Source: Chthoniobacterales bacterium
GTDB lineage: Bacteria; Verrucomicrobiota; Verrucomicrobiia; Chthoniobacterales; UBA10450
Assembly: GCA_013821455.1 (NCBI GenBank)
Contig: JACDGS010000007.1
Coordinates: forward strand, 62,001-126,000
Length of the DNA: 64,000 bases
Direction of reading: 5' to 3'
Shown here: positions 1 through 40,813 of the stretch, piece after piece
How positions within the stretch are numbered: position 1 is the stretch's first letter
Layout: every line of letters starts with the position of its first letter
Position numbers and translations under genes: made by a program
Notes under the pieces: generated by a model
What the model was told of the DNA's origin: nothing
The model's input: the letters and a program-made list of their open reading frames with translations, nothing else
The model's database searches: none

Positions 1-3000
1 CGGCGAACATCTCGCGGAAGTTAATTTTCACCTGCGCGAAAGTCTCAGCGAAAAGTTTCTCCGTCGTTTGGTTGATCCGCGCAATGACGTCGAGCAGCTC
101 GCGGCGCGAGTTCGTTAGGTCGGTGTTCTGCGTTTCGAGAAAAGTATGGCGCTCTTCCAGCTCGTCGTATTCCTGCACGGCGTCGAGATTCACCGGCCCC
201 ATGGCGTCGAGCTGGCGGGTCAGCTCGGCGATAATCTGGAAAAGCTCGGCCGCATCCGGTTCGTTAGGCTCGTCCTCTTTCGCATTGCGTTTGATTTGGG
301 CGCGCAACGTTTTCGTAAACGCATAACGATCCGGCGCGAACTCGCGCAGATCGATCTGGTAACGGCGCATGACGTGTTCGGTCAGGTTCTCGATTTTTAT
401 TTGCAGCTGCGTCTGGCGCACTTCCTCTTTGCCGCGCGCTTCATGCAGATCGCTCAGCGCTTTGCGCGCGGTGCGCAGCTCGGCCTCAAACGCTGTCACT
501 CTCGTTAGGCGGGAGGAGCGCGTCGCCGCGATTTCGCGCACGTTGGCGACGGCCTGCGCCAATGCCTCTCCGATGCTTTCGATCGCTTCCTCCGCCGCGC
601 TGGATTCAATCGCCTGCTGCTCGCGGCGTGATTGGTAGGCCGCGATATCGGCGCGGCGCGTGGCAATCAATTCCGCCAGTTCCGCCTGCCGCGCGGTCAT
701 CGGTTGGCGTTGACTGCGCAGACCTTCGTGACGTTGACGTTCGGTTGCGACGGCGAGACGCAGTTCGCTCAGTTGTTCGGCCAGTTCGGCGTCGCGCAGG
801 CGCGCTGCTTCCGCGGCCGAACGGCGGTTGGTCCGCTCCGCGTGTTTTGAATCGAGAGCATTTTGCAGGTCGATTGTTTCGCTCTCCAACGCGGCAACTC
901 TTTCGGTCGCGACGACGAGCTGTTGATCGAGCGTCGTCTTCTCCCATGCGAGCGCGTCGGCTTTGCGATTGGCTTCGTGCAGCTCGCGCTCCAGAGCGTT
1001 GATTTCGACCGAGGTCGCCGAATGCGCGCCGCGTGCGGTCTGGTGCGTCTCGCGGATTTCGTCCAGTTTTTCCGCCGCGCGCTTGACGGCGCGTTCGGCT
1101 TTCGTCCGCTGGTTTTGCAAAGTCTCACGCGCCGCCAGGAGCTCCCGATGTTCCGCGCCTAACGACGCGATCTGCGCTTTGCGGGCGAAGAGCGAGCTGC
1201 TCTCGGCATCAACGCGGCCGCCGTAAATGATCCCGCGACGGGAGACGAACTCGCCGTTGAAGGTGGCGAAGGCCAGACTCGGGTTTTGCGCCTTCAGCGT
1301 TCGAGCCTGCGCGAGATCGGAGACAAGCGCTACTCCGCCTAACAATTGCCTAACGACTGCTTCGAGATCGGGTGGCGCCTGCACTTTTTCACTCGCCCAG
1401 CCGAGTGTTCCTGCCGGGAGCGCGTTTTCCTTTTCGGTCGCGCCCTCGCGCAATAGCTCCGGCGCGATGAGCGCGGTCTGGCCCAGTTTTTTGTCGGAAA
1501 GCTTCGTGATGATCTCGACCGCGACGGCGTCATCGCGCAGGACGATTGCGTGCAGATTGCGGCCGAGCGCGGCCTCGACCGCAGGAATAAATTTCTCCTC
1601 CACTTCGATGAGCGAGGCGAGCGCGCCGACCAGCGCGGGCAGCAGGCGATCGGGATCGTCCAAGCCCTTGAGCAGCGCCTGCGAACCTTCCGCCAGACCT
1701 TCACCTTCGCGGTTGAGCTGCTGCAAAACTTCAAGACGCGACTGGCGTTCGGTTAACGCGCGTTCGCCCGTAAGCAAGGCCGACTCGGTCTCGCGCACAC
1801 TCGCGTTGAGGCGATTTAATTCCTCTTCGGCCGCGGGAATTTTAACGGCGGCGGACTGCATCGATTCCGCCTGTTCGTGCGCCGTCGCGCGCAACGCTTC
1901 GAGACGGCTCGCGATTTGATCGCGTTCCGCTCCCGCGTTGCCTAACGACGCTTCCAGCTCCGCCACCCGCGGCCTCGTCGCGCCGTGACGCTCCTGTGTG
2001 CCGACAATTTCCTGCGCGAGATCTTCAAGCCGGTGTTCCGTTTTTGAAATCGCCAGCTCGAGTGTTTGCAAAGCCTGATCCTGCTCTTCACGTTCGCGCC
2101 GCACCGCGGCGGCGCGGTCGGCCGCGGTCGTCAGCTCTTCTTTCTTGGAAGCGAGAAGCCGCTCGGTTTCTCCAAGCAGCGCGTCGGTGTCATGAATCTC
2201 GGTTTCCTGTTGTGCGAGCTTCGACTCGGCGGCGGCGACGTCACTCTCGTAGCGCTCGATCAGCGTCGCCAGTTCCTGGGCGCGTTCGCGATTGAATTCG
2301 ATCCGGCTGCGATGTGCGGCGATCTGATTTTCCAGCCGCTGCACCTCGGCGCGCGCGTCGTTGATTTGCGCGTCGATTTCGTCGAGCCCGCGGCGTTCGG
2401 TCGCGACCGCGTTCTCCTGTTCTTCGATCGCGCCCTCGGTGGTGTGCTGCTGCTCGTCGAGACGAGCGGTCGTCGCGCGCGAGATTTCGAGTTCCGTGCC
2501 TAACGAGTCGAGCTGGTCGCGCGAATGATGCGTGTCGAGCACCTGCAAATCGGCCAGCAACGCCTGATATCTGCGCGCTTTTCCGGCCTGGCGCTGGAGC
2601 GAGCCGATTTGGCGTTTCACTTCCTTGATGATGTCGCCGAGCCGCAAAAGATTCGCTTCGGTCGCTTCGAGTTTGCGCAGCGCCTCGCGTTTTTGCGTTT
2701 TGTATTTCGTGATGCCGGCGGCTTCTTCAAAAACCGCGCGCCGATCTTCCGGCCGCGAGCTGAGGATCTGATCGATCCGGCCCTGTTCCATGATCGAATA
2801 GGCGCTGCGGCCGACGCCGGTGTCGGCGAAAAGCGCCTGCACATCCTTCAGCCTAACGACTGTCTTGTTGAGCAGATATTCCGAAAGCCCGTCGCGATAA
2901 ACACGCCGCGAAACGCGCACGTCGTGCCAGTCCACGCCGAGCTCGCTCGCGCAGTCGCTGAACGTTAGGCTGACTTCCGCGTAGCCGACCGGTTTGCGCG

Positions 3001-3211
3001 TGTCGGTGCCGTTGAAAATGACGTCGGCCATTTCGCCGCCGCGGAGCGCTTTCGCGGACTGCTCGCCGAGAACCCAGCGCACGGCATCGAGGACGTTGGA
3101 TTTGCCGCAGCCGTTAGGCCCGACGATCGCGGTCACACCTTCGTGGAAATTAAAAACGGTTTTATCGACGAAGGATTTGAAGCCGAAAAGTTCGAGTGAT
3201 TGGAGGTGCAT
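1..3211 (-). CDS. smc: Chromosome segregation ATPase SMC (3' end outside window)
   Basis: Reading leftward from an ATG at 3211, about 1,070 codons stay open to the window edge. The N-terminus (MHLQSLELFGFKSFVDKT) and the Walker A motif GPNGCGKSN are classic SMC, followed by long heptad-rich coiled coil, a hinge-like globular segment in the middle (about residues 510-660, around 1240-1680) and a second coiled coil. The C-terminal head with Walker B and the ABC signature would lie beyond base 1. SMC compacts and segregates the chromosome with ScpA/ScpB, neither of which is seen here. Eight exact copies of the GCCTAACGA-type core word fall inside the gene, so its coding sequence tolerates the word in several frames. 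Identity is secure; only the truncation by the window is open. Confidence 0.96.
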   Translation of the reverse strand, partial: MHLQSLELFGFKSFVDKTVFNFHEGVTAIVGPNGCGKSNVLDAVRWVLGEQSAKALRGGEMADVIFNGTDTRKPVGYAEVSLTFSDCASELGVDWHDVRVSRRVYRDGLSEYLLNKTVVRLKDVQALFADTGVGRSAYSIMEQGRIDQILSSRPEDRRAVFEEAAGITKYKTQKREALRKLEATEANLLRLGDIIKEVKRQIGSLQRQAGKARRYQALLADLQVLDTHHSRDQLDSLGTELEISRATTARLDEQQHTTEGAIEEQENAVATERRGLDEIDAQINDARAEVQRLENQIAAHRSRIEFNRERAQELATLIERYESDVAAAESKLAQQETEIHDTDALLGETERLLASKKEELTTAADRAAAVRREREEQDQALQTLELAISKTEHRLEDLAQEIVGTQERHGATRPRVAELEASLGNAGAERDQIASRLEALRATAHEQAESMQSAAVKIPAAEEELNRLNASVRETESALLTGERALTERQSRLEVLQQLNREGEGLAEGSQALLKGLDDPDRLLPALVGALASLIEVEEKFIPAVEAALGRNLHAIVLRDDAVAVEIITKLSDKKLGQTALIAPELLREGATEKENALPAGTLGWASEKVQAPPDLEAVVRQLLGGVALVSDLAQARTLKAQNPSLAFATFNGEFVSRRGIIYGGRVDAESSSLFARKAQIASLGAEHRELLAARETLQNQRTKAERAVKRAAEKLDEIRETHQTARGAHSATSVEINALERELHEANRKADALAWEKTTLDQQLVVATERVAALESETIDLQNALDSKHAERTNRRSAAEAARLRDAELAEQLSELRLAVATERQRHEGLRSQRQPMTARQAELAELIATRRADIAAYQSRREQQAIESSAAEEAIESIGEALAQAVANVREIAATRSSRLTRVTAFEAELRTARKALSDLHEARGKEEVRQTQLQIKIENLTEHVMRRYQIDLREFAPDRYAFTKTLRAQIKRNAKEDEPNEPDAAELFQIIAELTRQLDAMGPVNLDAVQEYDELEERHTFLETQNTDLTNSRRELLDVIARINQTTEKLFAETFAQVKINFREMFA

Positions 3212-3321
3212 GGAGCGTTAAATTTACATACGCCCCGCGCTCGGCGGTGACAATGAAAATAAACGCTATCTTGGGGGAGGTGGCGACGTTCCGCACAAGA
3301 TGTAGTGCGCAGCGAACTGGA

Positions 3322-3398
3322 CGAATTTGGAGGCCAGGAAACCAGGATGAAGAACGATTTCCCCTATCCCCTTCCTGGTTTCCTGGTTTCCAAATTCG
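3322..3398. terminator. Imperfect inverted repeat between smc and the permease gene
   Basis: Arms 3322-3348 and 3372-3398 are complementary at about 24 of 27 positions around a 23-base loop. The right arm lies inside the 3' end of the permease gene and the left arm just beyond its stop codon, so the transcript could fold into a strong hairpin. The arms carry the short phrase CCAGGAAACCAGGA. It could end permease transcription (no clear U-tract) or be a mobile-type palindromic repeat. Confidence 0.55.
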
Positions 3399-4710
3399 TT
3401 CCTTCCTGTTTCCGCCGGAAGAGGAACAGAACCGAAGCGACTGCGAGCACGATGCCGGTAATGAGAAATTCCGTGCGCGTCGCGTGCGCTAAAATCCAAA
3501 TGATGACCACGATCGCGATTGGCGGGACGATCCAGGCGCCGGGAAAGGAGAAAGGTTTGCCATCTGCGCGCACATCGCGACGGGTCAACTCCAGCGCCGC
3601 CGCGCAGCAGAGCAAATAAAGAATGAGAACGGAAACATTCGCGAGAATCGCGAGCTGCTGGAAACTCGAGCTGAGCGACAGGGCCAGGCAAATCACGCAA
3701 TAAGAAACAATCGCAATATCCGGCGTCCGAAAACGCGGGTGCACATGCGCAAGAACCGCCGGCAAAAAACGGTCGCGGCCCAAAGCGAAAAGAATCCGCG
3801 GCGAGCTGAGCACGTCGCTCGCGACAAAGCCAAAGGCGGAAACGGTCGCGCCGAGGACGAGGAAATTGCGGCCGGCCGGTCCAGCGAATCGCCCCGCCGC
3901 TTCCGCGAGTGGCGCGGTGGTGAATTTGCCCAGATCGCCGAGGAGAATTCCCTGCGCGACCATTTGGATAAGGATGTAGAGCAGCGTCGTTAGGCCAAGC
4001 GCGAGATAGATCGCCCGCGGCACGGTGCGCGAGGGATTTTTCACCTCGCCGCTCGGGACCAGCGCCACCTCGATGCCGGCAAAAGCGAAGATGAGCAGGA
4101 GCACGCCTTTGCCGAGGGCCTGCGGTTCGGGCAACGCGATCGCCAGCGCGTCCGCTCCCCTAACGAAAAAGAAACCGACGCCAACGAAGAGAATAAGCGG
4201 AACAAGTTTAATCACCGTGATCAGGCCGACGGCCGTCGTGCCGCCGCGCACGCCGCGGACGTTGATCCAGGCGAGCGCGCCGAAAACGAGTCCGCTGATG
4301 AGAAAGTGTCCGAGCGTCGAAGCCAGCGCGGGCAAGAGCACGGTGACGGAAGCGGAAAAGAGACTAACGACTCCGGAAACGCTCGTGATCGCGGTGAGAA
4401 AATAAAGAACGCCACCGAGAAAACCGACGAACGGTCCGAAAGCGGCCTCGACATAAGCGTAAAGTCCGCCCGTGAGCGAGACGCGGCTGCCCGCGATGGC
4501 GAGAGAGGTTACGACCAGCGCCATCACCACGGCGCAGACCAGAAACGCGACCGGCGCGGCCGCGCCTAACGACGCCGCGACCAGCGCCGGGATCGCGAAA
4601 ATGCCCGCGCCGACGGTGGAGTTAACAATATTTGCGGCCAGTCCCGGGACGCCGATGGCACGAACGAGTTGATCATCGACGCGTGCGGTTGCGGGTGGCA
4701 GATCCGTCAC
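3364..4710 (-). CDS. APC-superfamily amino acid permease
   Basis: A 448-residue integral membrane protein with about 12 hydrophobic segments and the N-terminal signature NSTVGAGIFAIPA typical of the amino acid/polyamine/organocation superfamily. It should be a secondary transporter in the cytoplasmic membrane moving amino acids with protons or by exchange; the substrate cannot be read from the sequence. The middle shows FAFAGIEVALVPSGEVKNP, the conserved TM6-7 region of the family. The start is a GTG at 4710. The last dozen residues (about GTNLETRKPGRG) are encoded by the right arm of the inverted repeat at 3322-3398, so the repeat has probably extended the original C-terminus. The next gene upstream is gamma-glutamyltransferase on the same strand, 87 bp away; a link through glutathione-derived amino acids is possible but only suggestive. 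Confidence 0.9.
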   Translation of the reverse strand: MTDLPPATARVDDQLVRAIGVPGLAANIVNSTVGAGIFAIPALVAASLGAAAPVAFLVCAVVMALVVTSLAIAGSRVSLTGGLYAYVEAAFGPFVGFLGGVLYFLTAITSVSGVVSLFSASVTVLLPALASTLGHFLISGLVFGALAWINVRGVRGGTTAVGLITVIKLVPLILFVGVGFFFVRGADALAIALPEPQALGKGVLLLIFAFAGIEVALVPSGEVKNPSRTVPRAIYLALGLTTLLYILIQMVAQGILLGDLGKFTTAPLAEAAGRFAGPAGRNFLVLGATVSAFGFVASDVLSSPRILFALGRDRFLPAVLAHVHPRFRTPDIAIVSYCVICLALSLSSSFQQLAILANVSVLILYLLCCAAALELTRRDVRADGKPFSFPGAWIVPPIAIVVIIWILAHATRTEFLITGIVLAVASVLFLFRRKQEGTNLETRKPGRG

Positions 4711-4797
4711 GCGTGCATGGTGGGCGCAGGGGCGGATGGTGACAAGCTAGAATCGCGGGATAGGCCCTATGCGACCCATGGGTCTTATAGGACCTGT

Positions 4798-6540: not shown

Positions 6541-6565
6541 CCCCGCAGCGTAGCAGCGAGCGGGC

Positions 6566-6673
6566 GGAAGTCAGGCTTCCAGCCTGACTCGGCCGACGGG
6601 CTTCCAGCCGGTCGGTTCTATTTCGGACAGGCTGGAAGCCTATCCGCCGAGTCAGGCAAGATGCCTGACTTCC
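6566..6673. repeat. Compound palindromic repeat with GGCTTCCAGCC cores
   Basis: Between the divergent ggt and M20 genes lies a nested hairpin. Outer arms 6566-6592 and 6647-6673 match at about 23 of 27 positions. Inside are further small palindromes, including three copies of the core GGCTTCCAGCC/GGCTGGAAGCC (about 6574, 6600 and 6630). The same core recurs at 9099, 10466 and 10591. The pattern resembles REP/REPIN elements. It would sit in the 5' leader or promoter region of both neighbours. Confidence 0.75.
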
Positions 6674-6708
6674 GTGACAAACTTTTCCGCGCGCACTAAC
6701 GTCTGCGC

Positions 6709-8043: not shown

Positions 8044-8056
8044 GGAAGGATCGCCC

Positions 8057-10614: not shown

Positions 10615-10634
10615 AGGTGAGGGGTCGCTTCTCG

Positions 10635-24362: not shown

Positions 24363-24425
24363 CTTTGCGCGCAAGATTCAACGGCGCGCGGGCCGCGTCC
24401 AATGGCGCTTTCGCCTAACGAGTGC

Positions 24426-24572
24426 CTAACGACCAAGCAGAATAAAAATTCCCGCGAGGAGCGCGACGATCGCCGGGATGATGCCAAGAAAGACGCCCGC
24501 CAGAGCGTTGATGCCAACCAGAATCAGGTAAACCGCGAGCAGGATCATGCCGATGTTTTTATTGAAGTTCAT
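24426..24572 (-). CDS. Small two-helix membrane protein (48 residues)
   Basis: Reads from ATG 24572 to TAG 24426-24428: starts MNFNKNIGMILLAVYLILVG, then a loop INALAGVFLG and a second helix ending AGIFILLGR. Two hydrophobic helices with a short turn, matching a type of small conserved membrane protein common in bacteria whose role is unknown. The stop codon lies inside one copy of TCGTTAGG and a second copy follows 3 bases later. It is easily missed because it is short. Confidence 0.7.
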   Translation of the reverse strand: MNFNKNIGMILLAVYLILVGINALAGVFLGIIPAIVALLAGIFILLGR

Positions 24573-28030: not shown

Positions 28031-29623
28031 TTAGGCGAGGAGGAAGTGGCGGTTGAAATACAGCTGCAGGCCGGCCTCCGCTAGCTCGCCACGGTAGCCG
28101 ATATAACCGTCCGGCCTAACGAGTATAAGTCCGCTTTTCGTTAGGCCGTAGGCGCCATGGGCCAGGCCGGTGAGATCGTACAGGTCGGCTTTGCTCTCCG
28201 GTTCCCCGCGCGCGATGAGATAAGTGTCCACGAACCCGCCCGGTAAAGTGGTTAGCATTTTACCGAGAGCTTCGCGTTGGGAGTCGATGGCGCCGCTTGC
28301 GCCCAGAAAGAGCAGGAGGACGTGTCGCGGCAAGCGGAAAAGTTCGAAGAGCCGGCGCGCTCTCCCTTCGCCGTCGCGCAGCTCCGCGTCGGGCGCGCGT
28401 TCCCCCGCGCGCGGGCGGCCCGGGCCGTGGTTTTCCACAATGGGACTGAGGCGATAATTAATGTCCAGCTCGCTGAGATGATCGACTAGTTTGTCGGTCA
28501 GCAACCCAATTCCGCTCACCGCCGGGAGCAGAAAATCGCGCACATTTTGTGCGACGGAATTTCGCAAAGTGCCCATGCGCGTGATGCGATCGGTCAGGTT
28601 GAGCACTCCGCGCGCAACCGGCTCGCGCTCGAGCTGGTAGCTGGCCAGCAATTGGGCCGAGGCGCGACCGTTGAGGACGAGCGCGAGTTTCCAAGCCAAG
28701 TTAAACGCATCCTGGATTCCGGTGTTCATGCCCTGCCCACCGGCCGGGCTGTGAATGTGCGCGGCGTCGCCCGCGAGGAAGACGCGCAGCCTGCGGAAGT
28801 CGCGCACTTTGCGATGCGAAATATGAAAACGCGAGAGCCAGACCGGATCGCTCAACTGCGTCTGGGCGGGGCCGCGGCGATTCGTTAGGCTTTGCACGTC
28901 GTCGAGCGTGAGCTCGGGCAAATTTTCCGTGCGCGTTTGCGGCGGGATGCTCGCGACGATGCGCCAGCGCTCGCCCCCGAACGGAAACAGGCCGAGCAGC
29001 CCGTCGTCGCCCAGGTAAAGATGGATACGATCGCGCACCAGCGGCGACTCGGCGCGAACGTCGGCAAGAATGAAACTCTCCTCGTACTGCGCGCCCTCGA
29101 ATTCCACCCCGAGGGCGTGACGGGTGGTGCTATGCGCGCCGTCGCACCCGAGCAGCCACGGCGTCTCCACATTTTCGAGCTGGCCATCCGCGTGTCGCAA
29201 GGTGGCGTGGACCACATCGCTCGTTTGTTCCAAAGTCGTTAGGCAAACTTCGCGCTCGACCGCGAGGCCGAGACTGGCGAGGTGCTCGAGCAGGAGACGT
29301 TCGGTTTCCGATTGCGGCAGACTGAGCGCAAACGGAAAAGGGCTGGCGACCGAAGCGAAATCAACCGCCGCGAGCGTTTTCTCGCGGTGATGAATGGACA
29401 AGCCGCGCAGACGATGGCCAGCCGCGAGAAAGCGGTCCGCGAGGCCCATGCTTTGAAAGACCTCGAGCGTGCGCGGAAAAATGCCGAGCGCTTTGGAGTG
29501 TTGCGAACGTTCCTTATTTTGATCGACGACGCGGCAACGGATTCCGTGGCGGGCCAGCTCGCAGGCCATCGTTAGGCCAACCGGTCCGGCGCCGATGATG
29601 AGCGGGATGGGAGTGGTGGACAT
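28031..29623 (-). CDS. FAD-dependent aromatic monooxygenase (PheA/TfdB-like)
   Basis: A 530-residue flavoprotein hydroxylase. Motifs: dinucleotide fold IIGAGPVGLTMACELARHG, second FAD motif WLLGCDGAHSTTRHALG and third motif VFLAGDAAHIHSPAGGQGMNTGIQDAFNLAWKL. The C-terminal thioredoxin-like domain typical of phenol hydroxylases follows (about 400-530). It should use NAD(P)H and O2 to hydroxylate an aromatic substrate; which one is unknown, though resistance enzymes (rifampicin or tetracycline monooxygenases) share the fold. It starts at ATG 29623 and its TAA stop lies inside a 9-mer copy (28028-28035). Three further exact copies plus an inverted pair lie in the gene. Confidence 0.9.
   Translation of the reverse strand: MSTTPIPLIIGAGPVGLTMACELARHGIRCRVVDQNKERSQHSKALGIFPRTLEVFQSMGLADRFLAAGHRLRGLSIHHREKTLAAVDFASVASPFPFALSLPQSETERLLLEHLASLGLAVEREVCLTTLEQTSDVVHATLRHADGQLENVETPWLLGCDGAHSTTRHALGVEFEGAQYEESFILADVRAESPLVRDRIHLYLGDDGLLGLFPFGGERWRIVASIPPQTRTENLPELTLDDVQSLTNRRGPAQTQLSDPVWLSRFHISHRKVRDFRRLRVFLAGDAAHIHSPAGGQGMNTGIQDAFNLAWKLALVLNGRASAQLLASYQLEREPVARGVLNLTDRITRMGTLRNSVAQNVRDFLLPAVSGIGLLTDKLVDHLSELDINYRLSPIVENHGPGRPRAGERAPDAELRDGEGRARRLFELFRLPRHVLLLFLGASGAIDSQREALGKMLTTLPGGFVDTYLIARGEPESKADLYDLTGLAHGAYGLTKSGLILVRPDGYIGYRGELAEAGLQLYFNRHFLLA
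28114..28146. repeat. Inverted pair of the 9-mer inside the monooxygenase gene
   Basis: GCCTAACGA and TCGTTAGGC are separated by 15 bases, a perfect 9-bp inverted repeat. It lies near the 3' end of the monooxygenase gene (28031-29623), so the mRNA could form a hairpin. A second such pair, 17 bases apart, spans the start codon at 34655 (34629-34663). Confidence 0.7.
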
Positions 29624-29695
29624 GAATTAACTTATCACGGCGGGTGCAAAGGCGAACGGGTTTGCCGCGCTCAGCGCATCGGGAAAAAGCAGACT

Positions 29696-29856
29696 GTCAT
29701 CCCGAGCGGAGCGCAGCGGAGTAGAGGGATCCCGGGGAGCTTCCGTGAAGGTGCGCGGGCGCAACAAATTCTTCCGCGGAATGCCCTAACGAGTTCGAAA
29801 TCTTTCGGGAAACCCGGCGGGATCCTTCGACTGCGCTGCGCTCCGCTCAGGATGAG
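29696..29856. repeat. Intergenic hairpin repeat, copy 2
   Basis: The 298-bp gap 29624-29921 holds no gene but this element: left arm from TGTCATCCCGAGCGGAGCG (29695) and right arm GGGATCCTTCGACTGCGCTG to AGGATGAGG (29820-29858), partly complementary, with an internal spacer of about 95 bases. It is a longer version of the element at 18688-18783 and contains one copy of the 9-mer at 29785. Confidence 0.65.
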
Positions 29857-29921
29857 GGGTGGCGTTTACGGGGAGAGGCGCGTTTTTGCGAACCGGGCCC
29901 TCAGCTACGTCGGATGCGCTC

Positions 29922-32837: not shown

Positions 32838-32876
32838 GCGCTCAGATTAAATTGAGCGGGCGCGGACGCAACGCGG

Positions 32877-34655
32877 CTATTTCTCGAGGAGAACAAACGT
32901 GCAGTGAGAGATCCGCGGTCCGCTGGGCCAATTCTTTAATTGAACGTTATCAAAGACGAGCCGGTAACTGTGTTGGCCGGTTTTGAAATCGATCGTGGAA
33001 GCTTCGACCTGAAGCTCCGACCCATTCTCGACGGCAGTGATGAGAGCTTGCGGAAGCGGAAGGATTTGAGGGGTCGTTTCCCCAACGCCCACGACCTCAA
33101 TCTTCCCGTCGGTCTGGCCGATGGAAACGTTGCCGAACTGCTTCGGCATCCACTTCCCAGAGTCACCGCCTAAAAGCGTGACCTGCCAAAGGCGCCGATA
33201 TCCATCTATAGGCAGAGCCGTTGTCTGGTCACGGTGTGACATTTTCGAGTCAGGGGTCGACGACAGACTTCGGACGGGCGTTTTCGTCGCGATATGAAGC
33301 GCATCGATGATACCGCTCGCGTCGTTTGCGCTATTTAGTTTGGCGGGGTCCAGGACCTTGGCAAAGAATGGGCGCAACGAATCGCTGCCGTGCATCCGTA
33401 GAAGATAAACAAGTGACGAGCGGAGGCGCTCGTTATCCTGTGCAGATAAGTTGAGCGGTTCCGCGGCCGCCTGCGCAGCATTCCCCGACCAAAGATGGTG
33501 TTCCTGAAGAATTGCGACCAGGCGATGAAGCTGACTGCGCTGCGAAACCGCGCCGGCACTCCAAGGGCCGTAGGCACACGTCAGGCAAAGGATAGCCAAC
33601 GCTGCTGAAATCCAGCGTATGTCCGCGTGCCGGCGAAAAGTGAAAACGAGCGACCAGATAAAGATACAGACGCTCGCGAGCAGGCCGAAATAGCGATCTT
33701 CAGTTACGCCGTAGTCGGCGATGCGTTTGTGCACGGCCATGAAAAGGAGCACGGCCAGGGGGCCGAGCGCGGGAGGGAAAATGCGCAGGAAAATTCGCGC
33801 CCACTTTTCGTTAGGCAAATCCTGCAACGGATGCAGGAGCAAGGCGGCGAAGATTCCAACCGAGGATAAAATCAAAACAGGCAAGGCCACCCAGCCGTGG
33901 GGCCAGGCGCGCTGCGCCATGATTTTGATCGCGTAGGTATAGAGAATCGCGGCGTAAACGAAAATGAGCGGTGCGAGGGCGGATTGGGTGAAGATTTTTA
34001 GCCAGCGCGGATAATCGAGGTTCGTTTCGAGAACGGGGAAGTCGGCCGGAACGTCGCTGAGGAAAAAGATCGGCCAAAAAACTCCGGCGAGGAAGAGCCA
34101 CAAATCGAGAAAGGAGTGGTCGAGATGCAGCTCGAAAAGTTGATCGGCGCTCCAAAGGGCGATTTCCAAACCACCGGTAAGGATGGCGGCGTAAAGTGTC
34201 GTTAGGCAAAAGCGAAAGCCGAGGTAAAAATCCCATGGCCAGAAGCCGAGCTCGGGCGCGCGGCGAAGATACGGCGAGAGTGACGCGAAAAAATTGAGCG
34301 CGGCGAAAACGAGCGCCCAGCGAATGAAAACGATCAGCGGCTCATCGTTAGGCCGGGCGGAATGCGCGAGGAACCACGCCACGAGAATCGCGATGCCTAA
34401 CGACTCCGCGATGAAGCGCAGGCGCGGCGTGCGCTCGCGCAAAATGCGCAGGCCGAACAGAAGCGGAATGCCGAGGAGCGCCGTGAGCGCGAGTCGTTCG
34501 CATTGGCCGACGATGGCTTCGTTTTCGTGCCAGTGATTTGCAACGGTGCCGCAGGCGGCCGCAATCACGCCGCACAAAATGACGAGCGGAAAACGGGTTA
34601 ACGCGATCGCGATCCCCGTGCGCCATCGGCCTAACGAGAAACGCGGCCAGCTCAT
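32877..34655 (-). CDS. DUF4153-type polytopic membrane protein
   Basis: A 592-residue protein with about ten to twelve transmembrane segments in the first 400 residues and a 190-residue hydrophilic C-terminal domain. The middle contains SALAPLIFVYAAILYTYAIKI and KRIADYGVTEDRYFGLLA, which are the marks of the DUF4153 family; no function is known. The C-terminal part after about residue 400 is probably periplasmic or cytoplasmic and unrecognised. It begins at ATG 34655, whose codon lies between an inverted pair of the 9-mer (34629-34637 and 34655-34663). It follows the peroxiredoxin by 7 bp. Confidence 0.8.
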   Translation of the reverse strand: MSWPRFSLGRWRTGIAIALTRFPLVILCGVIAAACGTVANHWHENEAIVGQCERLALTALLGIPLLFGLRILRERTPRLRFIAESLGIAILVAWFLAHSARPNDEPLIVFIRWALVFAALNFFASLSPYLRRAPELGFWPWDFYLGFRFCLTTLYAAILTGGLEIALWSADQLFELHLDHSFLDLWLFLAGVFWPIFFLSDVPADFPVLETNLDYPRWLKIFTQSALAPLIFVYAAILYTYAIKIMAQRAWPHGWVALPVLILSSVGIFAALLLHPLQDLPNEKWARIFLRIFPPALGPLAVLLFMAVHKRIADYGVTEDRYFGLLASVCIFIWSLVFTFRRHADIRWISAALAILCLTCAYGPWSAGAVSQRSQLHRLVAILQEHHLWSGNAAQAAAEPLNLSAQDNERLRSSLVYLLRMHGSDSLRPFFAKVLDPAKLNSANDASGIIDALHIATKTPVRSLSSTPDSKMSHRDQTTALPIDGYRRLWQVTLLGGDSGKWMPKQFGNVSIGQTDGKIEVVGVGETTPQILPLPQALITAVENGSELQVEASTIDFKTGQHSYRLVFDNVQLKNWPSGPRISHCTFVLLEK

Positions 34656-34662
34656 CGTTAGG

Positions 34663-35157
34663 CTATTTTAACTCGGCGAGCTTGGCTTTGATCTTGTCGA
34701 AGTCGGGGACTTCGCGCGCGTCTTCGCGGACTTCGGCGTATTGAATCACGCCGTCGCGATCGACGATGAAGGCGGCGCGTTTGGCGACTCCGGCAAAACC
34801 GAGATTGAGCTGCGGAAGGAACGAGTCGTAGGCCACGCCGTAATCCTTGGTCACTTTGTGTTCGTAATCACTCAGGAGCGTGACTTTAATTTTCTCTTTC
34901 TGCGCCCAGGCTTCCTGCGAAAAAGGATTGTCGCCGCTGATGCCGTACACTTCGGCGTTGAGATCGCCGTATTCGCTCAGGCCGTTGCCGACGCTGCACA
35001 TTTCACTCGTGCAGGTGCCGGTGAAGGCCATCGGGAAAAAAAGCAGGAGAGTATTTTTGCGGCCGAAGTTTTCGCTCAGCCTAACGGGACGCGGGCCGTC
35101 GGCGGTTTTGGTGGGAAGGGTGAAATCAGGTGCCTTGCTGCCGACTGTGAGTGCCAT
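34663..35157 (-). CDS. Peroxiredoxin (AhpE/BCP-like)
   Basis: A 164-residue thiol peroxidase that reduces hydrogen and organic peroxides. The peroxidatic Cys49 is in FPMAFTGTCTSEMC, with a second Cys54 five residues on that could be the resolving residue. The remainder KVTLLSDYEHKVTKDYGVA and KRAAFIVDRDGVIQYAEV is the thioredoxin-fold core. It starts at ATG 35157 and should need an external reductant. It reads into the DUF4153 gene with 7 bp spacing, so the two form one unit. A copy of the 9-mer begins 1 base after its stop. Confidence 0.9.
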   Translation of the reverse strand: MALTVGSKAPDFTLPTKTADGPRPVRLSENFGRKNTLLLFFPMAFTGTCTSEMCSVGNGLSEYGDLNAEVYGISGDNPFSQEAWAQKEKIKVTLLSDYEHKVTKDYGVAYDSFLPQLNLGFAGVAKRAAFIVDRDGVIQYAEVREDAREVPDFDKIKAKLAELK

Positions 35158-35238
35158 AATAATCTCGGTTGAGGTTGCGCGGGGGCGTTCAGTATAGAAA
35201 CGCGCGCGGCTGGGTCAAAGGATTTGCGGACCAACAGT

Positions 35239-35306
35239 CTCGTTAGGCTAACGGACCGCCGGCGTATTCGTTAGGCAACGGCGGCCACGCCGTGTCTTCG
35301 TTAGGC
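35239..35306. repeat. Three 9-mer copies in 66 bp between genes
   Basis: TCGTTAGGC occurs at 35240, 35268 and 35298, all in the same orientation, in and just before the end of the L,D-transpeptidase gene. The first is extended to CGTTAGGCTAACG, a 13-bp palindrome, so it is half of an inverted pair. The third supplies the transpeptidase stop codon. This is the densest cluster in the window. Confidence 0.85.
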
Positions 35307-35990
35307 GCGCTTCTGTGCGGGAGGCGCTTTGCGCGTCGCGGCGGCTGTCGCAGCCTGCTCCGGCGCCGCGGCGAAGATCACTTTGTCGGGCGTGTGCGCC
35401 GGCTTGTATTTGGGAAGCTTTGGGAGCGAATCGGGAATGATCCGGACGAGCGCTCCGAGATCGAGCTGCGCGTAAACTTCCGCGACGTCCTTTGAGCACA
35501 TGCGCACGCAGCCGTAGCTGGCCGGTTTGCCGATGCTCTTTTCTTCCGCGGTCCCGTGGATGTAGATGCAGCGATAAAAGGCGTTGGCGTTTTCCGCTTG
35601 GAGACCGCGCAGCCAGATGATGCGGGTCACAATCGGATCCCGGCCGGGCGCGTTCGGCGCGAGGATTTCTCCGGTGAATCGTCGCTTGTGAAAGACGGCG
35701 CCAACCGGCGCATGGTCGCCGATTTTTTGCGCGACCTGCAGCCAGCCTAACGGCGTCGCCATCGAGCCCCAACGATCGCCGATGCCAAACTTCGAGGTCG
35801 AGACCGGGTAGACTGCGGCACGCTTACCGCCTTCGATCACCATCAATTTCTGATCTTTGACGCTGATGATGATACGTGGCGGGACGACCACTGTTTCCGT
35901 GCCCGCTCGCAAATCGAACGCGGCCGAAATCAGAAGAGCCAGAGCGAGCAAGCCACTGCGCAGAAACACGAGCGCTTTATTACTGGGCAT
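35301..35990 (-). CDS. L,D-transpeptidase (YkuD domain)
   Basis: A 229-residue exported enzyme that forms 3-3 peptidoglycan cross-links or attaches lipoproteins. A signal peptide (MPSNKALVFLRSGLLALALLISAA) leads into the YkuD fold: IIISVKDQKLMVIEGG, then the active site IHGTAEEKSIGKPASYGCVRM with the His and Cys161. The C-terminal 40 residues are Pro/Ala/Lys-rich. ATG 35990 is preferred because it starts the signal peptide; the open frame extends 22 codons upstream. Its stop codon lies in the third copy of the word at 35298-35305. It lies 11 bp after the glycosyltransferase stop and may be co-transcribed with it. Confidence 0.9.
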   Translation of the reverse strand: MPSNKALVFLRSGLLALALLISAAFDLRAGTETVVVPPRIIISVKDQKLMVIEGGKRAAVYPVSTSKFGIGDRWGSMATPLGWLQVAQKIGDHAPVGAVFHKRRFTGEILAPNAPGRDPIVTRIIWLRGLQAENANAFYRCIYIHGTAEEKSIGKPASYGCVRMCSKDVAEVYAQLDLGALVRIIPDSLPKLPKYKPAHTPDKVIFAAAPEQAATAAATRKAPPAQKRA

Positions 35991-36001
35991 AGGGGATGTT
36001 G

Positions 36002-37510
36002 TCACGCAGAAACTGCATTTCCGCGCGAACCGGTGAAAAGATATCCGGGCCACCACTGCGCGACCGAGGAAAGTGCCACGTAGAGAAAACCGAGCTGGAA
36101 CATGAGAAGGAAAGGCAGATTCAAAAACTGGCGATGCTCGATCGCGAAATAAACGAAGTAGCTGAAGTAAGCCGCGAATCCGATCTCGATGATCGGGAGG
36201 AGTGACTTCAGGGGCATGTAACGGCAGGAACGCCAGGCCTGCGCTTTGTGCTCGATGCCGTACTTCGGCGTCCGCTTGAATTCCGACTGATGATTGAAAA
36301 CTGCCTCGAGGACGGCGCGGGCATTATTAATGGAGAGCCCAACCCCGAGCGCGAGGAGCGCGGGAAGGAGAAGGATTTCCTTCATCCAAGTGTGGGGATG
36401 CAATTCGCGTTGCGCGCAAATGTAAAACACGGCGACGGAAAGCGAGGCGCTAAGAAAAATCGGCACGTCAATGAGGAACATGCGAAGCCAGCCGGTTTGC
36501 GGCCCGCCTAACGACGGATGCAGGAGCACGCAAAGGCAGGCGAGGAGCAGGTAGGCGAAGTTGGAGGTGAGATGCCCGGTGGCTTCGATCTTGATCGGCA
36601 ACGGCAGCCCGCTGCGCCAAATGCGTGGGAGCAATTTCTTGCAGGTCTGGATCGACCCTTTAGTCCAGCGATGCTGCTGCGATTTGAAGCCATTCATGTC
36701 CACGGGTAATTCCGCCGGCGTCACCACATCGGTGAGGAAGACGAATTTCCAGCCTTCGAGCTGTGCGCGATAGCTGAGGTCAAGGTCTTCGGTCAAGGTG
36801 TCGTGTTGCCAGCCACCCGAATTTTGGATGCAGGATTTGCGCCAGAGACCGGCCGTGCCGTTGAAATTAAAAAATCGTCCGCTGCGGCTGCGCGCGACTT
36901 GTTCGAGAAGAAGATGCCCGTCGAGGAACATCGCCTGGACGCGAGTGAGGAGCGAATAGCTACGATTGATGTGGCCCCAGCGAGTTTGAATCATTCCGAC
37001 CTTCGGATCGGTGAAGAAGTGGACTGTTTTATTGAGCAGCTCCGGTTGCGGAACGAAGTCGGCGTCGAGGATGCAAACGAAATCGCCGCGTGCCGAATCG
37101 AGCCCGCGCTCGAGTGCGCCGGCTTTGAACCCGACCCGATCGGTCCGATGAATCAGTTCGACATCGAAGCCGCGCTCACGCAGCCGGGCGACGCAGGTTT
37201 GGGTGACGTCGCGCGTCTCATCAGTCGAATCATCGAGGACTTGGATCTGCAAACGCTCCCTCGGATAATCGAGCTCGCTGACCGATTTGAGGAGCCGTTC
37301 GACGACGTAAATCTCGTTGAAGAGCGGTAGCTGAACTGTCACGACCGGCAGTTCGTCGAAATGCGCGAGCGGCTGCGGCGGGCGGTCCCGGTTTTTCAGA
37401 AACAAATAGACGATGAAATATCGGTGTAGTCCGTAACCGGAGAGGCCGATCAGGACGCTCAGGTAACAGACTGTCCAGATCACATCGGCGATGCTTCCTT
37501 GCATAGTCAT
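36002..37510 (-). CDS. Processive family 2 glycosyltransferase (cellulose-synthase-like)
   Basis: A 502-residue membrane enzyme with a large cytoplasmic GT-A domain. Conserved Asp and acceptor motifs: VLDDSTDETRD, CILDADFVPQPE, LTEDLDLSYRAQL and the processive signature QQHRW. One helix precedes and four or five follow the catalytic domain, which forms the glycan channel. It should polymerise a beta-linked polysaccharide (glucan or mannan) while extruding it; no BcsB or c-di-GMP PilZ domain is visible. ATG 37510 starts it. It is next to an L,D-transpeptidase, so an envelope role is likely. Confidence 0.88.
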   Translation of the reverse strand: MTMQGSIADVIWTVCYLSVLIGLSGYGLHRYFIVYLFLKNRDRPPQPLAHFDELPVVTVQLPLFNEIYVVERLLKSVSELDYPRERLQIQVLDDSTDETRDVTQTCVARLRERGFDVELIHRTDRVGFKAGALERGLDSARGDFVCILDADFVPQPELLNKTVHFFTDPKVGMIQTRWGHINRSYSLLTRVQAMFLDGHLLLEQVARSRSGRFFNFNGTAGLWRKSCIQNSGGWQHDTLTEDLDLSYRAQLEGWKFVFLTDVVTPAELPVDMNGFKSQQHRWTKGSIQTCKKLLPRIWRSGLPLPIKIEATGHLTSNFAYLLLACLCVLLHPSLGGPQTGWLRMFLIDVPIFLSASLSVAVFYICAQRELHPHTWMKEILLLPALLALGVGLSINNARAVLEAVFNHQSEFKRTPKYGIEHKAQAWRSCRYMPLKSLLPIIEIGFAAYFSYFVYFAIEHRQFLNLPFLLMFQLGFLYVALSSVAQWWPGYLFTGSRGNAVSA

Positions 37511-37712
37511 TTCCCAGAATGCGACCTAACGAGGCGCAACAGAGGCGACATGATGCCGCGTCCGTGAGATGCGTCAAATCAAATCTCGGTCGCGGCGAGG
37601 GAGCAAATTTGTGCTCGCGCCCGACTGAAAAAGCGTCGCGCGGCGCGGTATTCGCCGGTTGCTTCGCGCGCGAAGTAGCCGAAAACTGACGCCGGTAGAA
37701 GAGAACCGAATC

Positions 37713-40208
37713 GTGCGAGAAAAAAGCAATTTCCCCAGCGGCAGCCGTGGCCGCTTCGAGCGTTTGAATGTGATCGTGAGCATCCTGATCGCGGGCTGGG
37801 TGCCTTCGATTTTGATGCTCGTCGTCTCCTATACGATCCTTACTCGCACTCTGGAATCTAAAATCCTGCGCGACCGGCTGGCCTTCGTGCAGCTCATCGC
37901 GCATCTCGTCGGCGACGACCTCAGCGGAACAGGTGGCGTGGTCGGGTACTATCAAAGCTCGCCGCCGCTGCGCGCGGTCTTTACTGCGGCCGACCCCAAA
38001 GATGAAGGGCGAAAATGGTTGGCGGAGACTTTCTACTCTCACCCGCGCATCGACGGAATGTTTCTGGCGTCGGCGGAGGGAAAACTTATCGCCTCAATTC
38101 CCGCTGAACCGGCGCGAATTGGACAGGATTTTAGTTCGCAGCACTGGCTTGCCGGCGCGAGTGCGGCGAAGGAAATTTATGTCTCGCCCGTGTATCCGCG
38201 GACGATCGATGGGCGCAGCGCGGCCGAAGTTATGGGAACCGTTCGCGCGCAGGACGGCTCCACGCTCGGATATATCGGCGTCTCTGTTCTGGTCGAACGA
38301 ATCGGCCGTCGGCTTTCTGCGATTAATTTCGCCGACGAAACGCATTGCCAGATTGTCGATCAGAACGCACAGGCGCTTTTCGCGGGAAATTTTCTGGCGA
38401 ATACGGTTCCTATTTCGAGCGCGGACCAAAAGCTAATCACAGAGATTCGCAAAGAAAAGGCGGGCCAGCTCGAGCGGCAGGGAAGTATCTACACTTTCGC
38501 GCCAGTAGAATATACCGGCTGGACGACAGTGGTGGATCAGCCTCGGACGGTGGCGTTCGCGCCGGTGCACGATTTGTTGAAAAAAACCGCGCTGCTTGCG
38601 CTGTGGTTGATTATCGGGACGGCCATCATCGCGTGGCTCGCGAGCAAGGTCTATCGCCGGCAGAGCGAGGCCGCGGCGCGGATCGAGCGGGAGGTCACTT
38701 TTAACGACAAAATCCTGGCGAACATGCCGAGCGGGATCGCGTTGGTCGACCCTGAAACCCGACGTTTTCTGCAGGCTAACGAAGCGTTTGGGCAAATGGC
38801 GCGGCGGTTGGGAAAGCTGTCGCCGGAGAAGGAAATCACCGAGGCAGTGTATGAAGAAGTCGAGATCGCGCCGCGCGAGGCGATCGAGAAGGTGCTCGCT
38901 TTCGGCACTCCTTATCAACTTGTAGAACAGCCGCTCGTCGATCGCGAGGGCGCGACCAATTTCGTCAACGTCAATCTTTTGCGGTTGCAGGATTCCAAGC
39001 AGACCGTCCAAGGCGTGCTCTATCTGGTGGAAGATAAGACGCGCGATGTCCGGCTGCGGCAGGAGTTGATTTCAGCTAATGCGTCCAAGGATTCGTTTCT
39101 CGCATTGCTCTCACACGAGCTGCGCAACCCGTTGTCGCCTGTGCTCGCAATGGTCGGCGAACTGGAGGCGCGCGCCTCGGACGGGCCGGAAGTGCGCCAG
39201 GCTCTCGCGGTCATTCGCCGCAATGTGGAATTGGAGGCGCGCCTGATTGACGACCTCCTCGACATCACCCGCATCTCAAAAGGCAAATTGCAGCTCACGC
39301 TCGAGGTCACTTCGGTGCACGAGACGTTGCTCCGTTCCTATGAAATTTGCCGCGAGGATATCCTGCAAAAAAAATTGGAATTCGAGTTCCGGCTGAATGC
39401 CGCGGAAGAGCATGTCAACGGAGACCCCGCGCGTTTGCAGCAGGTCTTTTGGAACCTGATCAAGAACGCGGTTAAGTTCACGCCGGAAGGTGGAAAGATC
39501 GAAGTCGCGACATCAAACCCAGCGCCCGACAAAATCGAAATCAGCACGAGTGATAGCGGCATCGGCATCGAGCCGCAAAAAATCGGGAGAGTCTTCAACG
39601 CGTTCGAGCAGGGACAAAGCTCAATTACACGTCGGTTTGGTGGACTCGGTCTTGGTCTGGCCATTTCCAAGACAATGGTGGCGGCACATGGCGGGACGAT
39701 TTCGGTGCATTCGGAAGGAGCCGACAGGGGCTCGCTCTTCCGCGTCGTCCTCAATACTATGGCGGCCCCAGCGGTCGAAAAACAATTCGTTAGGCAAACG
39801 CCGGATCCCCCACGTGCGGATTTGGCCGATCGCAAAACGCATCTTCTCGTGGTGGACGACCATCACGACACTTGCCTCGGCATGAAAATGCTTTTGGAGC
39901 GGCGCGGCTATCGGATCACCCTGGCGCACAGCGCGAACCAAGCAGTCGAGAAAGCGCAAGAAGAGGATTTTGATCTTCTCATTAGCGACATCGGTTTGCC
40001 GGACCGAAGCGGCTACGAATTAATGAGGGAACTGCGCGCCACTCGCTCCCTCCGCGGAATCGCACTGAGCGGTTTTGGTATGGAAAGCGACATCAACAAG
40101 GCGCGGGCCGCCGGCTTCTCCGAACATCTGACCAAGCCGATCAATTTCGAGCGGCTCGATCAGACGATTCGTGCCTTGCTTGAATCCGAACCTGCTGAGA
40201 CCTCTTAA
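37713..40208 (+). CDS. Hybrid sensor histidine kinase with periplasmic sensor domain
   Basis: About 831 residues. Two transmembrane helices (about 20-43 and 290-312) enclose a periplasmic dCache-type sensor domain. A PAS-like domain (about 330-440) follows, then a HisKA dimerisation helix with phosphoacceptor His468 in SHELRNPLSPV, a HATPase domain (NLIKNAVKFTPEGG, DSGIGIEP, GGLGLGLAISKTMV) and a C-terminal receiver with Asp759 in ISDIGLPDRSGYELM. It should autophosphorylate on sensing an envelope signal and pass the phosphate to its own receiver and on. I use GTG 37713; an in-frame TTG at 37659 is also possible. No partner regulator is beside it. One copy of the 9-mer lies inside (39787). 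Confidence 0.9.
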   Translation: MREKSNFPSGSRGRFERLNVIVSILIAGWVPSILMLVVSYTILTRTLESKILRDRLAFVQLIAHLVGDDLSGTGGVVGYYQSSPPLRAVFTAADPKDEGRKWLAETFYSHPRIDGMFLASAEGKLIASIPAEPARIGQDFSSQHWLAGASAAKEIYVSPVYPRTIDGRSAAEVMGTVRAQDGSTLGYIGVSVLVERIGRRLSAINFADETHCQIVDQNAQALFAGNFLANTVPISSADQKLITEIRKEKAGQLERQGSIYTFAPVEYTGWTTVVDQPRTVAFAPVHDLLKKTALLALWLIIGTAIIAWLASKVYRRQSEAAARIEREVTFNDKILANMPSGIALVDPETRRFLQANEAFGQMARRLGKLSPEKEITEAVYEEVEIAPREAIEKVLAFGTPYQLVEQPLVDREGATNFVNVNLLRLQDSKQTVQGVLYLVEDKTRDVRLRQELISANASKDSFLALLSHELRNPLSPVLAMVGELEARASDGPEVRQALAVIRRNVELEARLIDDLLDITRISKGKLQLTLEVTSVHETLLRSYEICREDILQKKLEFEFRLNAAEEHVNGDPARLQQVFWNLIKNAVKFTPEGGKIEVATSNPAPDKIEISTSDSGIGIEPQKIGRVFNAFEQGQSSITRRFGGLGLGLAISKTMVAAHGGTISVHSEGADRGSLFRVVLNTMAAPAVEKQFVRQTPDPPRADLADRKTHLLVVDDHHDTCLGMKMLLERRGYRITLAHSANQAVEKAQEEDFDLLISDIGLPDRSGYELMRELRATRSLRGIALSGFGMESDINKARAAGFSEHLTKPINFERLDQTIRALLESEPAETS

Positions 40209-40234
40209 GCGCGAACTCGACTCGGCGGCAGCGA

Positions 40235-40813
40235 CTACTCTTTCGGCAGGCGCGCGTCGACCATCCCGCAGATCGTGTGCAGAAGAAATTTGTGCGCTTC
40301 CTGAATCCTGGCCGTCGTCTCACTCGGCACGAGCAACTCGATTTGGGCTCGACCTTTTGCCGGGCCGCCGCCGCGCCCGAGGAGCGCGACCGTCGTTAGG
40401 CCGCGAGCCTTTCCCTCTTCCAGCGCGCGCAGAATATTCTTCGAATTCCCGCTCGTCGTGATTACGACGAGGACATCGCCGGGTTTCGCCAGCCCCGCGA
40501 CCTGCCGCGCAAAGACTTCGTCGAAGCCGTAGTCATTCCCTATCGCGCTCATCAAGCTCCCGCCTTGGGCCAGGTTTAACGCCGGGTATGGCCGGCGATC
40601 GGTGACGAAACGACAGCCGAACTCCGCCGAGAAATCCGCGCCGTCTGCGGCGCTTCCGCCATTCCCGCAGACGAGCAGTTTCCCGCCCGCGCAAAGACAT
40701 TGCACCATCGCGTCGGCGGCTTGGGCGACCGGTTCCGCTAAATTCTCGAGAGAACGAAATGTCGTGACGGCTTCTTCGATTGCGTCTTTGAGTCGGTTAG
40801 TAGTTTTGCTCAT
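40235..40813 (-). CDS. gmhA: Sedoheptulose-7-phosphate isomerase
   Basis: A 192-residue SIS-domain enzyme that makes D-glycero-D-manno-heptose 7-phosphate, the first step to ADP- or GDP-heptose. Motifs: LLVCGNGGSAADGADFSAEF, VLVVITTSGNSKNILRALE and AHKFLLHTICGMVD. I start at ATG 40813 because the extra upstream reading frame has no recognisable protein. The last exact 9-mer of the region (40394) is inside it. Its substrate path continues in the GHMP kinase at 43728, so it probably belongs functionally to the cluster that follows. Confidence 0.93.
   Translation of the reverse strand: MSKTTNRLKDAIEEAVTTFRSLENLAEPVAQAADAMVQCLCAGGKLLVCGNGGSAADGADFSAEFGCRFVTDRRPYPALNLAQGGSLMSAIGNDYGFDEVFARQVAGLAKPGDVLVVITTSGNSKNILRALEEGKARGLTTVALLGRGGGPAKGRAQIELLVPSETTARIQEAHKFLLHTICGMVDARLPKE

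What the first reader, a model, noticed from the sequence alone, without database searches (positions are those of the whole stretch)
112..40401. A nine-base word (GCCTAACGA) repeated about 80 times in 40 kb
Reading the sequence I counted about 81 exact copies of the core CCTAACGA/TCGTTAGG between 112 and 40401, roughly equal in both orientations, and mostly preceded by G so that the unit is nine bases. Chance is about one or two. The copies are in unrelated genes, in all workable reading frames and in some gaps. Such density (about one per 500 bases) exceeds well-known uptake words (H. influenzae about one per 1.2 kb) or HIP1. Candidates: a DNA uptake sequence for natural transformation, a recognition or modification site, or a nucleoid/segregation mark. 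I know of no described word of this sequence in this phylum.
Basis: partly seen in the sequence, partly recalled or inferred. Interest (0 to 1): 0.92.

Follow-up and report, generated by a model that had tools for sequence, protein, structure and literature searches.

The report
DNA-uptake-like watermark word in soil Verrucomicrobiota
A nine-letter DNA word is stamped about 4,600 times over the chromosome of a Verrucomicrobiota bacterium, looks like a self-recognition tag for taking up kin DNA, and is replaced by a quite different word in a sister group of its family.

Summary
GCCTAACGA occurs 71 times in the window (0.35 expected) and 4,605 times in the 4.30 Mb assembly, 2306/2299 by strand, against 62 for the reversed word. 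Synonymous-codon shuffling leaves 9 of 357 coding copies, so codon bias fails. Copies sit in the four stop-free frames and in gaps, without local strand bias, and are kept at aligned sites in four congeners above background, strongly in two. Relatives place the organism in Verrucomicrobiota, Chthoniobacterales. The word is abundant in two genera and one further genome of its family, weaker in the rest, and near absent in most other sampled genomes of the phylum. A sister clade on a ComEC tree carries an unrelated word, AAGATCGACA (up to 4,653 copies); its first-branching genome carries both, with GCCTAACGA mostly at the window's sites. This is the pattern of DNA uptake sequence dialects, known to me only from Neisseriaceae and Pasteurellaceae, with a word replacement apparently caught midway. 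ComEC, DprA, pilus-type ATPases, secretins and prepilins are present. Competence, uptake and receptor are untested; a methylation-driven word remains possible.

The parts
261..40401 (.). word-rich tract: 70 exact copies of GCCTAACGA on both strands, about one per 590 bases
   Evidence: one search lists every copy. + strand starts (35): 1157 1348 1940 2498 2851 4564 5392 6490 6836 7962 8506 9435 9633 9819 12152 13127 16397 19926 21013 22386 23036 23357 24413 24424 25534 25878 26540 28114 30147 30879 31568 32055 34395 34629 36506; - strand starts (35): 261 502 3987 5888 7183 8126 10182 11447 13800 19223 19295 20270 21685 24308 24644 25225 26446 27254 28028 28138 28882 29236 29569 30344 31274 32236 33808 34199 34345 34655 35240 35268 35298 39787 40393
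24413..24432 (+). example of a tandem pair of words 11 bases apart
28114..28146 (.). example of a convergent (inverted) pair of words
   Evidence: such pairs are not enriched in the 393 kb sample (6 of 29 neighbouring pairs within 40 bases)
34629..34663 (.). second convergent (inverted) pair of words, at the junction of two ORFs
41001..64000 (.). word desert: one copy in 23 kb (39 expected at the rate of the first 41 kb, 25 at the genome mean); lower GC; glycosyltransferase, polysaccharide, sulfotransferase and export genes among others
   Evidence: the homologous tract is as empty in four congeners
49773..49781 (-). the only copy of GCCTAACGA in the desert

Best explanation
GCCTAACGA is most likely the DNA uptake sequence of this Verrucomicrobiota lineage: a minor pilin or other surface receptor of a type IV pilus binds the word in free DNA, the pilus pulls it through a secretin, ComEC imports one strand and DprA hands it to recombination. 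Because fragments that carry the word are taken up more often, each new copy is spread by recombination, and the genome fills up with copies on both strands wherever homologous recombination works. The receptor's specificity has changed in a sister clade, whose genomes filled up with AAGATCGACA instead; one genome (G014) carries both words. Shown: abundance, symmetry, independence from coding, site conservation, concentration in one family, two clade-specific words, presence of machinery genes. Inferred: natural competence, the receptor, the uptake bias, and the pathway of this sentence, which is taken from the known systems.
For: 4,605 copies genome-wide, strands equal, 62 for the reversed word. 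Coding copies 357 against a synonymous-shuffle mean of 9.2, largest 17 of 50. Kept at aligned sites: G003 20 of 29, G004 11 of 22, G002 8 of 22, G001 7 of 23, against 17.6, 15.0, 12.3 and 12.3% for other 9-mers of equal GC (binomial P 1.6e-9, 1.2e-4, 0.0055, 0.017). Concentration in the family: 36 of 37 genomes of family f1 exceed the reversed control, 0 of 21 of other families in the order do; of the 285 non-f1 genomes (four of them also) three of one genus hold 61, 75 and 133 copies, the rest at most 29. Second word AAGATCGACA: 147-4,653 copies in 16 of 37 f1 genomes, 11-85 in the other 21, 1-21 in the 21 outside; all 12 tree rows that have it form one ComEC clade (99/98) and the five abundant GCCTAACGA rows outside it another (100/100). 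In G014 both words are interspersed along one contig (45 and 132 in 80 kb), and 4 of 5 aligned GCCTAACGA copies are at the window's own sites. Word density rises from 0.12 to 2.38 per kb with GC from under 53% to over 63% (rho 0.69 in 193 bins), which the word's own GC of 5 in 9 does not predict. One ComEC, one DprA, 11 T2SSE-domain matches, 4 secretins and 14 prepilin motifs over the cut-off in the genome, with PilB/GspE-like and PilC/GspF-like proteins together at one locus.
Against: No competence, uptake or binding data exist. The two machinery families that were searched in relatives do not discriminate: ComEC is in 18 of 21 genomes outside f1 and 35 of 37 inside, T2SSE in 57 of 58; DprA, secretins and prepilins were searched in the own genome only. 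Of the NCBIfam pilus, secretion and ComEC equivalog models, GspG alone reached its curated cut-off. Inverted close pairs, said to be common in known uptake-sequence genomes, are not enriched: 6 convergent of 29 pairs within 40 bases. The word desert is not a recent foreign island: the tract is largely collinear in four congeners. Conservation is modest in the farther congeners, and only 4 of 15 window words are kept in G014 (P 0.052) and 0 of 14 in G009. The GC trend is not significant in G014 for either word. The tree is of one gene.
Confidence: 0.72

Rival explanations
1. A HIP1-like word: a modification enzyme and a modification-guided mismatch repair or similar process creates and maintains the word, without any part in DNA uptake.
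For: HIP1 and alternate HIPs in cyanobacteria reach like densities, are replaced by other words in some relatives and are matched by methyltransferases (PMC4390886, abstract and passages). AAGATCGACA contains GATC.
Against: HIPs are palindromes; both words here are asymmetric. One-base variants of GCCTAACGA are few in a strict centre and commoner at both ends, and AAGATCGACA is strict over ten bases, 0 to 8 copies for any one-base variant against 177, longer than the sites of most orphan methyltransferases (recalled). Methyltransferases were not searched here.
Confidence: 0.15
2. A chromosome-wide binding or polarity mark (Chi-like recombination site, KOPS-like segregation guide, nucleoid protein site).
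For: Such words can also be far above chance (recalled).
Against: Polar marks are skewed along each replichore (recalled); here the strand split is even locally, chi-square 17.8 over 17 loci. Nucleoid and terminus marks are fewer and palindromic as a rule (recalled). Spacing is close to random (CV 1.18). The genome is a draft, so ori and ter were not placed.
Confidence: 0.07
3. A by-product: codon-pair or amino-acid bias, or a dispersed mobile repeat.
For: Most copies are coding, as is most of the genome.
Against: Synonymous shuffle 9.2 against 357; four frames used; flanks carry little information beyond a few bases, so no longer repeat is being copied.
Confidence: 0.01

Closest known systems
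DNA uptake sequences (DUS) of Neisseriaceae, read by the minor pilin ComP
   Same: Asymmetric word of about ten bases, thousands of copies, coding and intergenic, dialects that follow phylogeny, one genome with two dialects (S. muelleri); PMC3630211, passages seen
   Different: Other phylum; the two words here share no evident common core (only A-(A/T)-C-G-A can be lined up), whereas all eight neisserial dialects share CTG; no excess of inverted pairs seen; receptor unknown
Uptake signal sequences (USS) of Pasteurellaceae (predicted receptor PpdA/ComN)
   Same: 9-base core, hundreds to thousands of copies; PMC12616744, passages seen
   Different: Unrelated sequence; [quoted passage not shown]
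HIP1 and alternate HIPs of cyanobacteria
   Same: Very abundant short word, replaced by other words in some relatives; PMC4390886, abstract and passages
   Different: Palindromic and linked to methyltransferases; here asymmetric, link untested

Membership tests
DNA uptake sequence (DUS/USS) | short asymmetric word in hundreds to thousands of copies, far above chance, on both strands | tested here: met
   4,605 copies, 2306/2299, reversed control 62
DNA uptake sequence (DUS/USS) | excess independent of coding content | tested here: met
   357 coding copies against 9.2 after synonymous shuffle; intergenic density 1.39, coding 1.11 per kb
DNA uptake sequence (DUS/USS) | dialects congruent with phylogeny | tested here: met
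   two abundant words, each in one clade of a ComEC tree, G014 with both; one gene, 27 of 37 f1 genomes
DNA uptake sequence (DUS/USS) | inverted pairs frequent, often as terminators (usual, not defining) | tested here: not met
   6 convergent of 29 neighbouring pairs within 40 bases, 2 of them non-coding; second word in G014: 0 convergent of 11
DNA uptake sequence (DUS/USS) | transformation machinery in the genome | tested here: met
   ComEC, DprA, PilB/PilC-like proteins, secretins, prepilin motifs; PilT and ComEA not tested; ComEC and ATPases do not discriminate between families
DNA uptake sequence (DUS/USS) | word-bearing DNA is taken up preferentially | not testable with these tools
   needs a cultured competent strain
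DNA uptake sequence (DUS/USS) | a sequence-specific surface receptor | not tested
   prepilin motifs listed, none assigned
HIP1-like iterated palindrome | the word is a palindrome | tested here: not met
   GCCTAACGA / TCGTTAGGC and AAGATCGACA / TGTCGATCTT (by inspection)
HIP1-like iterated palindrome | matching methyltransferase in the genome | not tested
   no methyltransferase search was made
Chi / KOPS-type polar mark | strand bias along a replichore | tested here: not met
   chi-square 17.8 over the 17 loci with at least 8 copies, total 257/226; tested as local bias within loci, ori and ter unknown

The most novel reading that the evidence does not exclude
An independent, third origin of a DNA uptake code, in Verrucomicrobiota, in which the receptor's word was not merely tweaked but exchanged for an unrelated one; G014 is a living intermediate that still carries the ancestral word at ancestral sites while it fills with the new one.
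Probability: 0.6. Interest if true: 0.92.

Novelty: new variant of a known kind. Interest (0 to 1): 0.87.

Why it matters
Uptake sequences are, in the papers seen, a matter of two proteobacterial families, taken as convergent or as of deep proteobacterial root (PMC12616744, passages). A third case in a distant phylum, here known mostly from metagenome assemblies, would show that the strategy recurs, would say that these bacteria practise frequent kin transformation, would give a handle for transforming them (add the word to the donor DNA), and would offer a natural experiment on how a genome-wide recognition code is replaced.

Tried and rejected
Codon and amino-acid bias: rejected. Longer dispersed repeat: rejected, flanks are nearly free. 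Polar mark: no strand heterogeneity. Recent foreign island as cause of the 41-64 kb desert: rejected, the tract is largely collinear in four congeners, whose homologous stretches also lack words (2, 0, 0, 0 in 70 kb). Terminator role: no excess of inverted pairs. Own words of other families of the order: samples of 11 to 40 kb from ten families gave no word as strong as the two, but G049 and G053 showed enriched longer words that were not examined further; the stretch from f7 (G042) was not analysed. Third dialect in genus g4: CTAACGAG 20 seen, 2 expected in 124 kb; its context may be a repeat; left open. Viral contigs with two close words (23 and 28 stretches): the richest hold 4 and 5 copies in about 13 kb, far below host density; uninformative. 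Prepilin isoelectric points (16 of 18 loci gave a protein, two of these the same one) showed basic ones on C51, C109 and C40 but gave no basis to choose a receptor.

Paper searches, lists capped: word A, 20 of 49 papers listed, none on a bacterial genome word by title; both words, 4 of 4, unrelated; uptake-sequence terms with Verrucomicrobia or Verrucomicrobi-, 1 of 1, 4 of 4 and 15 of 72 listed; Udaeobacter with competence or repeat terms, 15 of 1,570 and 15 of 70; competence genes with the phylum, 15 of 126; uptake sequences in general, 20 of 113; HIP1, 10 of 28. No description of either word was seen. The library holds hardly any bioRxiv preprints and lacks most subscription journals. Three papers were looked into, passages only.
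Full report
Observation. The word is real and extreme. The window has 71 copies of GCCTAACGA against 0.35 expected; 81 copies of the eight-base core lie before base 41,000, 70 of them preceded by G. The window is part of a 4.30 Mb, 117-contig assembly, completeness 97.5%, which has 2306 copies on one strand and 2299 on the other; the word read backwards has 62.

Nature of the word. In a 393 kb sample (window plus 20 stretches, one of them without usable letters) there are 483 copies. One-base variants are few in the centre (0 to 7 copies each at the four middle positions) and more common at the ends (up to 61), and the flanks carry only weak preferences, T at -3 and -4 and T at +9 counted from the first C of CCTAACGA. 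So this is a short recognition word, not a copied repeat. Of the 483, 357 are within predicted genes, in the four frames in which the word holds no stop, 103, 103, 86 and 65; 98 are intergenic and 28 straddle. Shuffling synonymous codons within each gene, which keeps protein and codon use, leaves a mean of 9.2 copies, at most 17 in 50 rounds. Gene prediction was my own simple ORF scoring. Spacing is close to random (CV 1.18, with two gaps over 6.4 kb where 0.1 was expected). Strand choice within loci is random.

Selection. At sites aligned with four congeners the word is kept in 20 of 29 (G003), 11 of 22 (G004), 8 of 22 (G002) and 7 of 23 (G001) cases, against 12 to 18% of other 9-mers of equal GC in the same alignments. 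The first two are strong, the last two modest (P 0.0055 and 0.017). In G003, all 20 aligned words of the relative coincide with words of the window. In the neighbouring genus (G005) 6 of 14 are kept. Only window 21.0-40.5 kb was compared. Overlapping 9-mers are not independent and conserved genes may hold more words, so the P-values are guides.

Who it is. PurL searches give Verrucomicrobia, Spartobacteria and Chthoniobacterales MAGs as nearest named records. A stretch of the congener G004 lies letter for letter in PNAA01000025.1, Spartobacteria bacterium isolate palsa_1392. So the host is a Chthoniobacterales bacterium; that it lives in soil and that its GTDB family is the one of Udaeobacter is inferred or recalled, not tested.

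Distribution. Among 58 genomes, the own one counted (37 of its family f1, 21 of other families of the order), 36 of 37 f1 genomes have more GCCTAACGA than of the reversed word; G016 does not (60 against 79). Counts run from 60 to 4,605. None of the 21 others does (1 to 30 copies). The call on the phylum covered 288 genomes, 285 of them outside f1 (four of these also); the highest are three genomes of one genus with 61, 75 and 133, a little above their reversed controls of 49, 48 and 66, then 29.

A second word. k-mer counts in samples of relatives showed a word in some f1 genera. Genome-wide, AAGATCGACA has 147 to 4,653 copies in 16 of 37 f1 genomes in seven genera, strands about equal, reversed control 0 to 3; the other 21 hold 11 to 85, the 21 outside f1 1 to 21. 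In G014 it is strict over ten bases and followed by A or T in 97%. It occurs in all six frames, unevenly (46, 39, 20, 10, 10, 3), 128 coding copies against 10.6 after synonymous shuffling (at most 17 in 100 rounds), and is denser outside genes (49 of 177 in 14% of the sequence). G014 has 1,802 GCCTAACGA as well, interspersed along the same contig, with 48 coding copies against 0.9.

History. A ComEC tree of 27 f1 rows and 2 outgroups puts the five abundant GCCTAACGA rows of g1 and g2 in one clade (100/100) and all 12 AAGATCGACA rows in another (99/98), G014 branching first in it (the next fork has 85/92). Of the five GCCTAACGA copies of G014 that align with the window, four are at the window's own sites, and of four that align with G005, three are shared; read from the window's side 4 of 15 are kept in G014 (P 0.052). 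None of up to six G014 copies is kept in G009, G016 or G023, and 0 of 14 window copies in G009. For AAGATCGACA, 7 of 22, 6 of 20 and 2 of 9 aligned G014 copies are shared with G009, G016 and G023, against 1 of 14 with the window (background 8 to 11%). The numbers are small. The simplest reading is that GCCTAACGA is ancestral to both clades, was replaced by AAGATCGACA in one, and fades elsewhere. Lining up the words gives A-(A/T)-C-G-A in common, which may be chance.

Where words are and are not. Density climbs with GC from 0.12 per kb below 53% (4 bins) to 2.38 above 63% (4 bins); rho 0.69 in 193 bins of 2 kb, 0.64 without the desert, 0.48 in 72 bins of other loci of the genome. The reversed word shows -0.12 but has only 5 copies, so it is a weak control; in G014, whose bins span 0.54-0.60, the trend is not significant (0.16 and 0.24). 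Density is also a little lower in bins of unusual tetranucleotide make-up (rho -0.25). A word of five G or C in nine should hardly respond to GC in this range. If GC reflects recombination (recalled idea), this fits words spread by recombination; it could also mean that low-GC tracts are younger. The desert of 41-64 kb has one copy and holds glycosyltransferases, a GHMP kinase, HlyD-type and outer membrane efflux proteins, a polysaccharide synthesis protein, sulfotransferases and a halogenase-like protein. The tract is largely collinear in all four congeners at 65-80% identity, with gaps, and in G002 and G004 with a part elsewhere; there it is as empty (2, 0, 0, 0; expected 13.1, 8.8, 12.8, 4.4). 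It is therefore an old desert, not a recent import; why is open.

Machinery. The genome has one ComEC of 757 residues with the Competence, DUF4131 and lactamase-like domains, one DprA, four secretins, 11 T2SSE matches, a locus with two PilB/GspE-like ATPases, a PilC/GspF-like protein and a prepilin (L240), a type II secretion-like cluster (L211) and 14 prepilin motifs over the cut-off. Of the NCBIfam equivalog models for these proteins only GspG reached its cut-off, so names beyond the Pfam domains are by resemblance. ComEC is missing in the two 0.9 Mb genomes of f8, in G046 and in two incomplete f1 genomes. It is as common outside f1 (18 of 21) as inside (35 of 37), as are the ATPases (57 of 58 in all); the other genes were searched in the own genome only. 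PilT, ComEA and RecA were not tested.

Verdict. The pattern meets the sequence-level features of a DNA uptake sequence that I could test, except inverted pairing, and has in addition lineage-specific replacement words, which I know only from uptake sequences and HIPs. I take uptake sequence as most likely (0.72), an asymmetric HIP-like word as the main rival (0.15). Novelty: uptake sequences are a known kind; the phylum is new as far as my capped searches show, and exchange for an unrelated word within one family goes beyond the neisserial dialects, which share a CTG core (PMC3630211, passages).

Noticed in passing
window 29694-29860: Intergenic dispersed repeat with inverted ends (GTCATCCCGAGC ... 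GCTCAGGATGA type), dozens of partial matches in this genome and in relatives; it holds one CCTAACGA.
   Followed up: partly
window 41163-63342: Lower-GC, word-free cluster of polysaccharide, sulfotransferase, export and halogenase-like genes, largely collinear in four congeners.
   Followed up: partly
L214 and L215 (G000 contigs C32 and C69): The same gene order, a large enzyme - prepilin - xseA-like protein, occurs on two contigs with diverged sequence, perhaps a second strain in the assembly (contamination 3.1%) or a duplication.
   Followed up: no
L209, L212, L213: Operons with prepilin-like proteins beside a 1442-residue or 600-residue protein without Pfam match; two other prepilins weakly match the NCBIfam model Verru_Chthon cassette protein D, below its cut-off, so these may be such cassettes.
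   Followed up: no
L144-L148, L115, L126 (genus g4): CTAACGAG enriched tenfold in a genus that has little of either main word; possible third variant or part of a repeat.
   Followed up: partly
genomes G239, G242, G251 (family f18, genus g63): GCCTAACGA slightly above the reversed control, 75, 133 and 61 copies, in another family of the class.
   Followed up: no
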